Shown one piece after another: positions 51,921-57,700 of a stretch of DNA of 64,000 nucleotides. The notes under the pieces are model-generated. The model was not told where the DNA came from. It did no database searches and saw nothing but the letters and a program-made list of their open reading frames with translations. The stretch's first letter is position 1, and the number at the start of each line of letters is the position of its first letter. This stretch comes from Acidobacteriota bacterium (GTDB lineage Bacteria; Acidobacteriota; Vicinamibacteria; Vicinamibacterales; UBA2999). The translations under genes and the position numbers were made by a program. The stretch lies in NCBI GenBank assembly GCA_030650395.1, contig JAUSDY010000076.1:1-64000 (forward strand), written 5' to 3'.

Positions 51921-54770
51921 CTATGAGGATTCCACCCGAAACGGCTCAAAGTCGTCGATCCGATCGCGGCCTGTTACCGCCGGACGCCACGCGCGCGGCG
52001 GCTCGGCCGGGACGGCCACGCGACAGAGCGCATGCCTCGACGATCCGCCCTGCCAGAGCGTGACAGCCGCATCCGGCGTCGCAGCCATCGACGCCGCGAG
52101 AGGCGCGGGCAGAATTTTCCCGAGCGACCCTTTCGCCATCACCAGGCGCCCGCCGGTCAGTGTGGCGCCGAGGTAGACGCGATCGCGTGCGCGCGTCAGG
52201 GCCACATACAGCAGGCGCTTCGTTTCTTCGTGCTCGCGCGCCTCGAGGTCCCGATCGCTCTCGTTGAGGTGATCGCTCACCGACACGGACGGCTCGCCGC
52301 CCGGCTCGTCCTCGCCGGCAAACGGCGCCGCAACCACCCGGATGTCGTCGCGGTTGCCGCCGCTGCCCTTGCCGAGATTGACCACGAACACGATTGGAAA
52401 CTCGAGTCCCTTGGCGGCGTGAACGGTCATCAGGTTCACGGCGTCGGCGGCGTCGATAATCGCGTTTGATTCGTCGCCGCCAGCGACGAGCTCCGCAAAA
52501 TAATCGGCGAGCCGGCCGAGCGTCGCGTAACCACGATTCTGGATGCGGCGGATCAAGCCGCGGACCTTCTTCAAGTTCTCGCGCGCCTGCGCGAGACCGG
52601 GGCCGGCGATTTCCACCGCATAGGCCGACTCCGCCAGTACGCGGTCTACAAGCTCAGCCGGAGGCAGCAGATCTGCAAGCGGCACCCACATCCGCACGCT
52701 TTCGCGCGCAAGGACCAGCCGGTCGAGATCATCACGCTCGAGCACCTCGGCCGTAGCCGGTAGATCCTCTGAAAGCAGCGCCTCGGCGAGACCGGGGGCC
52801 AGGATCTTCAACGCCCCGTCCGATAGCTGGACCATGCGGGACCGCAGGAAAGCGGCGGCCTTCAAAGGCGAGCCCGGATCCGAAAGGTAGGCTACCAGCG
52901 CCAGGACGTCTTTCACTTCGTCGGCATCGAAAAAGCCGAGCCCTTTGTAGACGTAATAGGGCACGCCTCTCCGTCCCAGCGCCGCTTCGAAGAGCGCGTG
53001 GCTCTCGCGCGTCCGGAACAACACGCCGATGTCGCCCGGCGACGCCGGCCGGCGCACTCCGGTGTGGCGATCGCGAACCGTCACGCCGTCGATCAGCAGC
53101 CGGGCGATCTCTTCGCCCACCGCCTCGGCCTGGGCCGCGTCACTCTCCGCGGTGACGATCCCGATCGCCTCGGCCTCGCTTGGCATGCCCTCCACCTTCG
53201 GAAACGCATCGTCTTCGCTATATCGAAACGCATCCGCCCGTTCCGGCACCTTGTCGATGGCGGCAAAAACGTCGTTGACGAACGATTGGAGCTCGTGGAC
53301 CGAGCGGTAACTGCGGGTGATGGCGGCGCGCGCCGGAAGATCGGGCCGCAACGCGTCGATGAAGCGGGCAGCGGCATCGAGCACGGTGACTTCGGCATCG
53401 CGAAATCCGTAAATCGACTGCTTGCGGTCGCCGACGATGAAGATCGAGGGCGGCAGGGGCCCGTGGGTCATGCCTTCTCCGGCGGCCCACGCGCGCACCA
53501 GCTCGCGCACCAGCTGCCACTGCGCGCGGCTGGTGTCCTGGAACTCGTCGACCAGCACGTGTTCGTAGCGCGACTCGAGCCGATACCGGCTGCGCGAGAA
53601 CTCTTCCATTTGTGCGAGCAGCAACAAGGTGCGCTCGAGCAGATCCGGAAAATCAAGGACGCCGTGCTTGTCGAGGGTGCGGCGATATTCTTCCTGCGCG
53701 ATGGCAAACAACCGCCGCACGCCTCGGGCGAGCACGAGGTTGATATCACGCCGGAACGTGTCGACCGCCGATTCGATGTGCGGCCCGAGGCCGAGCACAA
53801 TCTGCTTGTGCCGTTCGTAGTGCGCCGCCGACTTGAACATCGCCTTGGTGTGGATCGGACGCTTGCGCGGCTCGCCCTTCTGCGTCAGTACCAGCTCGGC
53901 CAGCCGATCGAGCGCGCCCCGCAACTGCGCCGGAGTCGGATGTAGAGGCGGGACTTCAGTCCCGCCTGCAGCGCCTGCTGTGATGCGATCAATATCGCGA
54001 ACCAACAACGCAAATGCCCGATCATCGGGACCGCTTGCCTTGAGTGCCGCGGCGACAGGAGAGAGCGCCGCCCTCAGACTGTGCAGCAATCGCGTGCAGG
54101 CGATCTCGACGCTCATGTCCTTGCCGCGGAGGAACCGGTTGAGCGCATCCCCGGCCACCAGCCGGCGGTCGAGCAGCGCCGCGAGTCCTTTTCGAATGCG
54201 CGGCTCGCCCAGTTCGGTAAACAGCAGCGCCACGTCCGAGTCGTCGAGCGAGAGCCCGCGGCCGATCCGCAACGCGCGATCGAGCGACGCTTCGGTGAAT
54301 CGCGGCGTTTCGGTTTCGTCGGCGAGGTCGAAGCCCGGATCGACGCCCGCCTCCAACGGAAACTCGTGGAGCAACGCCAGGCAGAACGCGTCAATCGTGC
54401 TGATCGCGATGTCGCCGAACGCATCGCGAATGTCGCGCCAGCGGGATTCGGGAATGCCGCCGAGCCGATGCCGCTCGCGCAGCGTGGCCATCACGCGCTG
54501 CCGCATTTCGGCGGCGGCCTTGCGGGTGAAGGTGATGGCCAGGATGTTGCGCGGCGCCACGCCGGCTTCGAGCAGGCCGACGTAGCGATCGACCAGCACA
54601 CGCGTCTTGCCGGTGCCGGCCGAGGCCTCGAGAGCGACGTTGCGGCGCGGATCCACCGCAATCCGCCGCGCCCGCTCGTCAGGCGTTTCGACATGTGGCG
54701 ACAAACCTTCATGTGGCGACAAACCTTTAGGTTTGTCGTCCCCGAAATCGAGCCGAGGCTGCTCAGCCAT
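51921..54770 (-). CDS. addA: UvrD/AddA-like helicase-nuclease
   Basis: LEASAGTGKTRVLVDRYVGLLEAG, VLVDEFQDTSRAQW, MTVHAAKGLEFPIVFVVNL, LLYVALTRARDRVYLG. Confidence 0.88.
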   Translation of the reverse strand: MAEQPRLDFGDDKPKGLSPHEGLSPHVETPDERARRIAVDPRRNVALEASAGTGKTRVLVDRYVGLLEAGVAPRNILAITFTRKAAAEMRQRVMATLRERHRLGGIPESRWRDIRDAFGDIAISTIDAFCLALLHEFPLEAGVDPGFDLADETETPRFTEASLDRALRIGRGLSLDDSDVALLFTELGEPRIRKGLAALLDRRLVAGDALNRFLRGKDMSVEIACTRLLHSLRAALSPVAAALKASGPDDRAFALLVRDIDRITAGAAGGTEVPPLHPTPAQLRGALDRLAELVLTQKGEPRKRPIHTKAMFKSAAHYERHKQIVLGLGPHIESAVDTFRRDINLVLARGVRRLFAIAQEEYRRTLDKHGVLDFPDLLERTLLLLAQMEEFSRSRYRLESRYEHVLVDEFQDTSRAQWQLVRELVRAWAAGEGMTHGPLPPSIFIVGDRKQSIYGFRDAEVTVLDAAARFIDALRPDLPARAAITRSYRSVHELQSFVNDVFAAIDKVPERADAFRYSEDDAFPKVEGMPSEAEAIGIVTAESDAAQAEAVGEEIARLLIDGVTVRDRHTGVRRPASPGDIGVLFRTRESHALFEAALGRRGVPYYVYKGLGFFDADEVKDVLALVAYLSDPGSPLKAAAFLRSRMVQLSDGALKILAPGLAEALLSEDLPATAEVLERDDLDRLVLARESVRMWVPLADLLPPAELVDRVLAESAYAVEIAGPGLAQARENLKKVRGLIRRIQNRGYATLGRLADYFAELVAGGDESNAIIDAADAVNLMTVHAAKGLEFPIVFVVNLGKGSGGNRDDIRVVAAPFAGEDEPGGEPSVSVSDHLNESDRDLEAREHEETKRLLYVALTRARDRVYLGATLTGGRLVMAKGSLGKILPAPLAASMAATPDAAVTLWQGGSSRHALCRVAVPAEPPRAWRPAVTGRDRIDDFEPFRVESS
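53941..53970. repeat. Family D palindrome in-frame in addA
   Basis: tgtagaggcgggacttcagtcccgcctgca; encodes AGGTEVPPLHP. Confidence 0.8.
54692..54739. repeat. Family A repeat, 18-bp period, in-frame in addA N-terminus
   Basis: catgtggcgacaaaccttcatgtggcgacaaacctttaggtttgtcg; encodes DDKPKGLSPHEGLSPHVE. Confidence 0.9.

Positions 54771-57700: not shown

What the first reader, a model, noticed from the sequence alone, without database searches (positions are those of the whole stretch)
54692..57098. AddA and AddB genes contain about six in-frame palindromic repeat insertions of different families
AddA carries a family A array at its N-terminus (DDKPKGLSPHEGLSPHVE) and a family D palindrome (GGTEVPPLHP, 53941-53970). 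AddB carries a family A 18-bp x4 array (DKPKGLSPPVGLSPPVGLSPPKGLSPPAG), a family E hairpin (PPKKGVPPQ), a family C hairpin (GGDTSPPPRSGQ) and a B-like sequence near 56380-56420. All keep frame. This resembles Rickettsia palindromic elements that insert into proteins, but here several families hit one end-resection enzyme, which suggests that insertions in surface loops are tolerated or selected.
Basis: partly seen in the sequence, partly recalled or inferred. Interest (0 to 1): 0.85.

Follow-up and report, generated by a model that had tools for sequence, protein, structure and literature searches.

The report
In-frame repeat inserts in AddAB linkers
In this uncultured acidobacterium, short repeats that normally litter the DNA between genes have slipped, in frame, into flexible linkers of the DNA-break enzyme AddAB and even more often of the error-prone polymerase cassette ImuA-ImuB-DnaE2; related species carry different repeats at the same linkers, so the same spots have been filled again and again.

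Summary
Confirmed and extended. AddA carries two and AddB four in-frame inserts from dispersed repeat families (A, D; A array, E, B-like, C). At most of these sites distant relatives lack them; near relatives carry other repeats there. Family A's palindrome has 114 exact copies in this genome and no reversed-pattern control; it occurs in 6 of 9 genomes of the genus and in none of 31 outside. Genic copies are frame-locked: internal A copies read DKPxGLS in 25 of 26, D 5/5, E 6/7, F 5/6. Orthologues show empty sites, single units expanded in situ, or unrelated repeats. D, E, F are GTAG-tagged REPs; A has GTGG. No family-specific RAYT was found. AddAB is not the main target: among 1442 sampled genes (114 internal patches, control 7) the top cluster is ImuA-ImuB-DnaE2 (8 versus 0.47 expected; 0 of 20000 scans). 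In relatives the same linkers hold different 7-nt tandem repeats; in genome G004 the cassette is again the densest cluster (scan P=0.0018). UvrA, RpoB and LeuRS show few inserts. Best reading: recurrent insertion, kept where frame, flexible linker and weak constraint allow. Intragenic REPs in RecBCD and DnaE2 were reported in 2013, so this is a new variant of a known kind.

The parts
51921..54770 (-). addA gene (RecB-like helicase subunit); start taken at the conserved MAEQPRLDF
   Evidence: Pfam UvrD-helicase 2.8e-53, UvrD_C; NCBIfam addA_alphas 4.3e-98, below cut-off; N-terminus by alignment
54763..57963 (-). addB gene (inactivated helicase plus PD-(D/E)XK nuclease), 1066 aa
   Evidence: Pfam PDDEXK_1 7.9e-35; model matches AddB of the AddAB crystal structures 3U44/4CEJ at E ~1e-22
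54687..54740 (-). family A array in AddA N-terminus (DDKPKGLSPHEGLSPHVE), two 18-bp units plus palindrome 54717-54738
53937..53969 (-). family D (GTAG-tagged) palindrome in AddA, peptide AGGTEVPPLHP
   Evidence: palindrome 53946-53967; insertion against relatives; family 17 copies in 1.65 Mb, 16 with GTAG
55720..55819 (-). family A array in AddB, four 18-bp units plus palindrome, peptide DKPKGLSPPVGLSPPVGLSPPKGLSPPAGIGVP, in the linker before the nuclease domain (residues 716-748)
   Evidence: residues 717-719 and 721-741 pLDDT below 50
56707..56742 (-). family E (GTAG-tagged) hairpin in AddB, peptide APPKKGVPPQP (residues 409-419)
   Evidence: P0001 keeps a related SPKTGVPPQP, P0002 lacks it
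56365..56430 (-). B-like insert in AddB (WSTGLSAVAEAKAEARSAEVDD, residues 512-533)
   Evidence: longer than most relatives at this loop; repeat k-mers
57052..57097 (-). family C element in AddB (RLGGDTSPPPRSGQ, residues 291-304)
   Evidence: near relatives P0001-P0003 and P0005 lack it, P0004 and P0006 have it
14199..14291 (+). composite A/B element inside another window gene (Na+/H+ exchanger, 13021-14553), peptides DKPSAFAQ...ADKKGLSPQ
42015..42133 (.). family A array in intergenic DNA, running into the called start of the gene at 42129

Best explanation
These are in-frame insertions of short dispersed repeats (GTAG- or GTGG-tagged REP-like palindromes and relatives; in sister species also 7-nt tandem repeats, often paired in inverted orientation) into flexible inter-domain linkers. 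Shown: the repeats are dispersed, mostly intergenic, lineage-restricted, absent or replaced at orthologous sites, and kept in one reading frame per palindrome family. Inferred: new copies land everywhere; copies that shift the frame, break a fold or give an unsuitable peptide are purged; hydrophilic Pro/Gly/Lys-rich peptides in linkers of weakly constrained proteins (AddB, ImuA, ImuB, DnaE2) persist; 18-bp half-units then multiply in place by slippage or recombination, always in multiples of three. The peptides probably act only as spacers. The repeat-rich linkers of AddAB and the mutasome are thus sites of repeated, convergent filling, not a designed module.
For: Dispersal and lineage: 114/89/18/10/4/4 exact A palindromes in six genomes of the genus, 0 in 31 outside it. 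Insertion; Ham1 and molybdopterin oxidoreductase sites empty in the relatives compared; LeuRS site empty in four; P450, aminotransferase and AddB have 1 unit in sister G001 versus 3-4 here. Replacement by other repeats at the same loop: XDH and PIG-L, AddB, DnaE2, ImuB, ImuA. Frame lock: 25 of 26 internal A copies, P=4e-7 even with two frames allowed; A, D, E, F together 30 of 34, P=5e-5 with two frames. Purging: 0.077 patches per kb inside genes versus 2.27 per kb between genes. Weak constraint: hit genes have lower codon scores (P=2.8e-5). Linkers. Enrichment: ImuA-ImuB-DnaE2 8 versus 0.47 expected, AddAB 4 versus 0.48; insert residues per 1000 core residues, median: DnaE2 17, AddB 9, ImuB 8 versus UvrA 0, UvrA-like 1, RpoB 0.8, LeuRS 1.2.
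Against: In G004 the density of GGGAGTC arrays in the mutasome (4 sites in about 5.8 kb) exceeds that of intergenic DNA for the same family (about 0.06 per kb, my estimate), which pure tolerance does not predict. Essential LeuRS also carries an insert. Family C is found mostly inside genes (38 of 57). Mobility is inferred: the only Y1 transposase found is flanked by its own inverted repeats, not by these elements. The AddAB P-value (0.0017) is post hoc, since the window finding was picked because of the repeats.
Confidence: 0.72

Rival explanations
1. The inserts are adaptive: repeat-coded linkers in AddAB and the ImuA-ImuB-DnaE2 mutasome tune recombination or mutagenesis (the mutator idea of the 2013 REP paper), and selection keeps refilling them.
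For: Recurrent filling of the same linkers by different repeats in many species; top gene cluster in two genomes; literature found REPs in RecBCD, UvrABCD and DnaE2.
Against: Other repair genes are not enriched (UvrA and UvrA-like); the A-hit genes annotated are mostly metabolic or transport genes; filling differs in sequence and length, and some species have short linkers.
Confidence: 0.1
2. Targeted insertion: mobilisation or repeat formation happens during DNA damage and prefers the DNA-damage genes being transcribed then, so the cassette is a true insertion hotspot and not just tolerant.
For: In G004 the mutasome holds more arrays per kb than intergenic DNA, and 4 of 14 genic arrays lie there.
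Against: Sites are confined to linkers between conserved blocks; in G000 the mutasome density (8 patches in about 5.9 kb, 1.4/kb) is below intergenic density (2.3/kb); copying between arrays already in place could also raise the density.
Confidence: 0.13
3. Frame lock reflects a codon-phase preference of the insertion machinery, not selection on the peptide.
For: One phase dominates in each of four palindrome families although other phases are mostly open.
Against: By my estimate from typical codon-position base composition, a one-base target preference in a GC-rich genome could give only about half in one phase, not about 90%.
Confidence: 0.05

Closest known systems
GTAG-tagged REPs inside genes (Di Nocera et al. 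2013, PMC3733652)
   Same: Short palindromes with an unpaired GTAG at one end, dispersed, mostly near gene 3' ends, sometimes giving the stop codon, sometimes inside ORFs including RecBCD and DnaE2
   Different: Several families in one enzyme; family A has GTGG; frame lock measured; order-wide convergence at the same linkers; UvrA not enriched; no family-specific RAYT found
Rickettsia palindromic elements (RPEs)
   Same: Palindromic elements inserted in frame into functional ORFs (quoted)
   Different: Other phylum and element sequences; smaller units (about 22-30 bp plus 18-bp tandem units); relation by descent not tested
GGGAATC / GGGGA(C/T)T heptamer repeats of Xanthomonas and Nostoc (PMC4692102)
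   Same: Dispersed 7-nt tandem repeats, mostly intergenic and close to ORF ends; GGGANYC x3 is abundant in several relatives
   Different: Here the heptamers, often as inverted pairs, lie in frame in DnaE2, ImuB and ImuA linkers
RAYT-mobilised REPINs
   Same: Short palindromic repeats in high copy
   Different: The single Y1 transposase found lies between its own inverted repeats, like the acidobacterial TIRYTs described in PMC3733652

Membership tests
GTAG REP superfamily | 20-40 bp palindrome in many dispersed copies | tested here: met
   A 44, D 17, E 30, F 32 copies in 1.65 Mb
GTAG REP superfamily (families D, E, F) | Unpaired GTAG at one end | tested here: met
   D 16/17, E 25/30, F 32/32
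GTAG REP superfamily (family A) | Unpaired GTAG at one end | tested here: not met
   A: GTGG in 42/44, GTAG in 2/44. A is REP-like, not filed as a GTAG REP
GTAG REP superfamily | Association with a RAYT gene (frequent, not obligatory, in the 2013 paper) | tested here: not met
   One PF01797 gene in the genome, flanked by its own ~55-bp inverted repeats; nearest A copies lie beyond a neighbouring gene
Rickettsia palindromic elements | In-frame insertion in ORFs with empty sites in relatives | tested here: met
Rickettsia palindromic elements | Sequence relation to RPE families | not tested
   No RPE sequences were compared; similarity is claimed for behaviour only
Heptamer tandem repeats (relatives' DnaE2, ImuB, ImuA linkers) | 7-nt unit in tandem, dispersed genome-wide | tested here: met
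   loop DNA; genome counts
AddAB helicase-nuclease | AddA helicase plus AddB with PD-(D/E)XK nuclease domain, adjacent genes | tested here: met
   NCBIfam scores are below the equivalog cut-offs of the alphaproteobacterial and Gram-positive models

The most novel reading that the evidence does not exclude
Across the relatives sampled within one order, the linkers of the ImuA-ImuB-DnaE2 mutasome and AddB are preferred landing places for species-specific repeats beyond what tolerance predicts, so that repeat turnover continually rewrites the linkers of the machines that control mutation and break repair.
Probability: 0.2. Interest if true: 0.88.

Novelty: new variant of a known kind. Interest (0 to 1): 0.7.

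Why it matters
It turns a passing 2013 remark (REPs in RecBCD and DnaE2 may not be fortuitous) into a measurable pattern with a natural control: many related species, the same linkers, different repeats. It shows how selfish or slippage-prone DNA supplies new protein segments in frame, and it lets tolerance, targeting and selection be separated. It also warns that linker length and sequence in AddB and DnaE2 of these bacteria are repeat-derived, not functional motifs.

Tried and rejected
(1) Dedicated RAYT for family A: rejected. (2) AddAB-only phenomenon: rejected. (3) General DNA-repair target: not supported by UvrA or by the genes hit by A. (4) AddA array as untranslated upstream DNA: rejected by the conserved start. 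(5) Frame lock through stop codons alone: rejected, since with two frames allowed P is still 5e-5. (7) PDB search by sequence gave nothing useful; fold search did. (8) Literature searches for DnaE2/ImuB repeat insertions, heptanucleotide STRRs and Vicinamibacter gave no direct precedent. (9) In one search two RpoB rows (G007, G029) carry implausibly many insert residues, probably from a wrong reading frame; only the median is used. (10) A motif scan for further repair and housekeeping genes in the sample found too few to use.

Full report
What was checked. The finding names about six palindromic inserts in addA and addB on the minus strand. All six were found. The two genes are AddA and AddB by domain content, and the AlphaFold model of AddB (mean pLDDT 73) matches AddB of the AddAB crystal structures best. 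The window belongs to a 5.4-Mb draft genome in 180 contigs. Names attached to close relatives place it in Acidobacteriota, probably Vicinamibacterales.

The repeats are dispersed elements. The family A core GACAAACCTNNAGGTTTGTC has 114 exact copies here, 89 in sister genome G001, 18, 10, 4 and 4 in four others of the genus, none in three others, and none in 31 genomes outside it; the reversed control pattern has none. In 1.65 Mb of stretches from the same genome (gene calls by a home-made codon model, coding 89%) there are 44 A, 17 D, 30 E and 32 copies of a further family F (CGCGGAACT palindrome). D, E and F carry GTAG on one side (16/17, 25/30, 32/32), family A carries GTGG (42/44).

They are insertions. 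AddB aligned with 14 relatives shows the four inserts; the A insert lies in the linker before the nuclease domain, where sister G001 has one unit and this genome four. The nearest AddB proteins (70-82% identity) carry other repeat peptides at the same linkers, for example SPLRQGFGGPGTSTGGSPPL and TDKPEGLSPHATDTRNGVSLHHG. AddA shows the D insert and the N-terminal A insert as additions. Of ten further genic A sites put in one chimeric query against five genomes, eight gave informative comparisons: Ham1 and molybdopterin oxidoreductase are empty in the relatives compared; P450 and aminotransferase have one unit in G001 and three here; XDH and PIG-L have unrelated repeats at the same loop in relatives. 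LeuRS has a long insert here and none in four genus members.

Frame. Of 28 genic A palindromes in G000 and G001, 25 read DKPxGLS; two exceptions sit at the very start of the called gene and may be untranslated, leaving 25 of 26 (P=4e-7 with two frames allowed). D reads GGT/S..PP in 5 of 5, E A-P-x-GVP in 6 of 7, F RNFSSA in 5 of 6. Inside genes there are 0.077 repeat patches per kb, between genes 2.27. Several A copies overlap the 3' end of a gene and supply its stop codon.

AddAB is not the main target. In the 1.65-Mb sample, 114 internal patches lie in 90 of 1442 genes, against 7 for reversed k-mers. The top cluster is three adjacent genes on contig C57: error-prone polymerase DnaE2 (NF004225, 1206 bits, cut-off 939), an ImuB-like and an ImuA-like gene (sequences; these two names rest on position, known mutasome gene order and weak family matches). 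They hold 8 patches against 0.47 expected; none of 20000 random placements gave any gene triplet with 8. AddAB holds 4 against 0.48 (P=0.0017, post hoc because the finding was chosen for its repeats).

Replication in relatives. DnaE2 from 16 genomes shows four linkers with variable content. Their DNA contains 7-nt tandem repeats, different in each species and often as inverted pairs: GGCAGAA in G000 and G001, GGGAGTC in G004, GGGATCA in G002 and G003, CATTCGA in G025. ImuB shows the same. In G004, 54 sites of GGGAGTC arrays were listed; 4 lie in the ImuA-ImuB-DnaE2 cassette, the densest 6-kb cluster among them (P=0.0018 for any window). Of 40 classified sites 14 are in genes and 4 of these in the cassette. 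ImuA of G004 has TGVGSRESGVGN where ImuA of G000 has SALPTGSALPTSDALPTS. As controls, UvrA, a UvrA-like paralogue, RpoB and LeuRS have median insert burdens of 0-1.2 residues per 1000 against 17 for DnaE2, 9 for AddB and 8 for ImuB. UvrA is a repair gene too, so repair function alone is not the cause.

How it most likely works. Shown: dispersed repeats, insertion, frame lock, linker positions, recurrence. Inferred: copies arise by slippage, recombination or unknown transposition; damaging ones are lost; linkers of weakly constrained proteins keep them. Hit genes have lower codon scores (P=2.8e-5; the insert itself lowers the score a little). A 7-nt repeat runs through all three frames and gives the same 21-nt/7-aa cycle in any phase, so stop-free heptamers are suited to enter genes; an 18-bp unit keeps frame whatever the copy number. 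Not explained: the G004 mutasome density above the intergenic density.

Known context. Intragenic REPs, including RecBCD, UvrABCD and DnaE2, and REPs giving stop codons were reported in PMC3733652, which also describes acidobacterial Y1 transposases flanked by long inverted repeats, as found here. RPEs of Rickettsia are quoted there as in-frame insertions. Heptamer repeats are described in PMC4692102. New here are the families, the measured frame lock, the in-place unit amplification, the convergence at the same linkers across an order, and the ranking of the mutasome in two genomes.

Limits. The genomes are draft metagenome assemblies; gene calls are home-made; the sample is 30% of the genome; controls are few; no expression data.

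Noticed in passing
L070:6455-12402 (G000 contig C57:26455-32402, minus strand): ImuA-ImuB-DnaE2 cassette with at least 8 in-frame repeat inserts, the densest gene cluster in the sample.
   Followed up: yes
L342:1209-7041 (G004 contig C19): Density of GGGAGTC arrays in the mutasome exceeds that of intergenic DNA for the same family; tolerance alone does not predict this.
   Followed up: partly
G000 sample, e.g. window 32657-32698 and 57056-57097: Family C (CCTTCGAC...GCTCAGG) lies mostly inside genes (38 of 57), unlike the other families, and uses several frames.
   Followed up: partly
L016:1258-2395: The only Y1 transposase gene found in the genome lies between ~55-bp inverted repeats, resembling the TIRYT elements described for Acidobacteria.
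   Followed up: partly
window 63190-63219: Perfect 30-nt family D palindrome GTAGAGGCGGGTCTTAAGACCCGCCTCTAC next to the 3' end of the gene at 63203.
   Followed up: no
window 63004-63046: Hairpin with 16-bp arms at the 5' end of the gene 62152-63015; possible regulatory element.
   Followed up: no
L260-L262 record titles: Close relatives are labelled Alphaproteobacteria, Cyanobacteria or Sulfopaludibacter in public records; probably misnamed metagenome bins.
   Followed up: no
L091, L100, L114, L123 and G000 C1:48593, C1:86650, C19:54084: Family A palindromes overlap gene 3' ends and supply the stop codon.
   Followed up: partly
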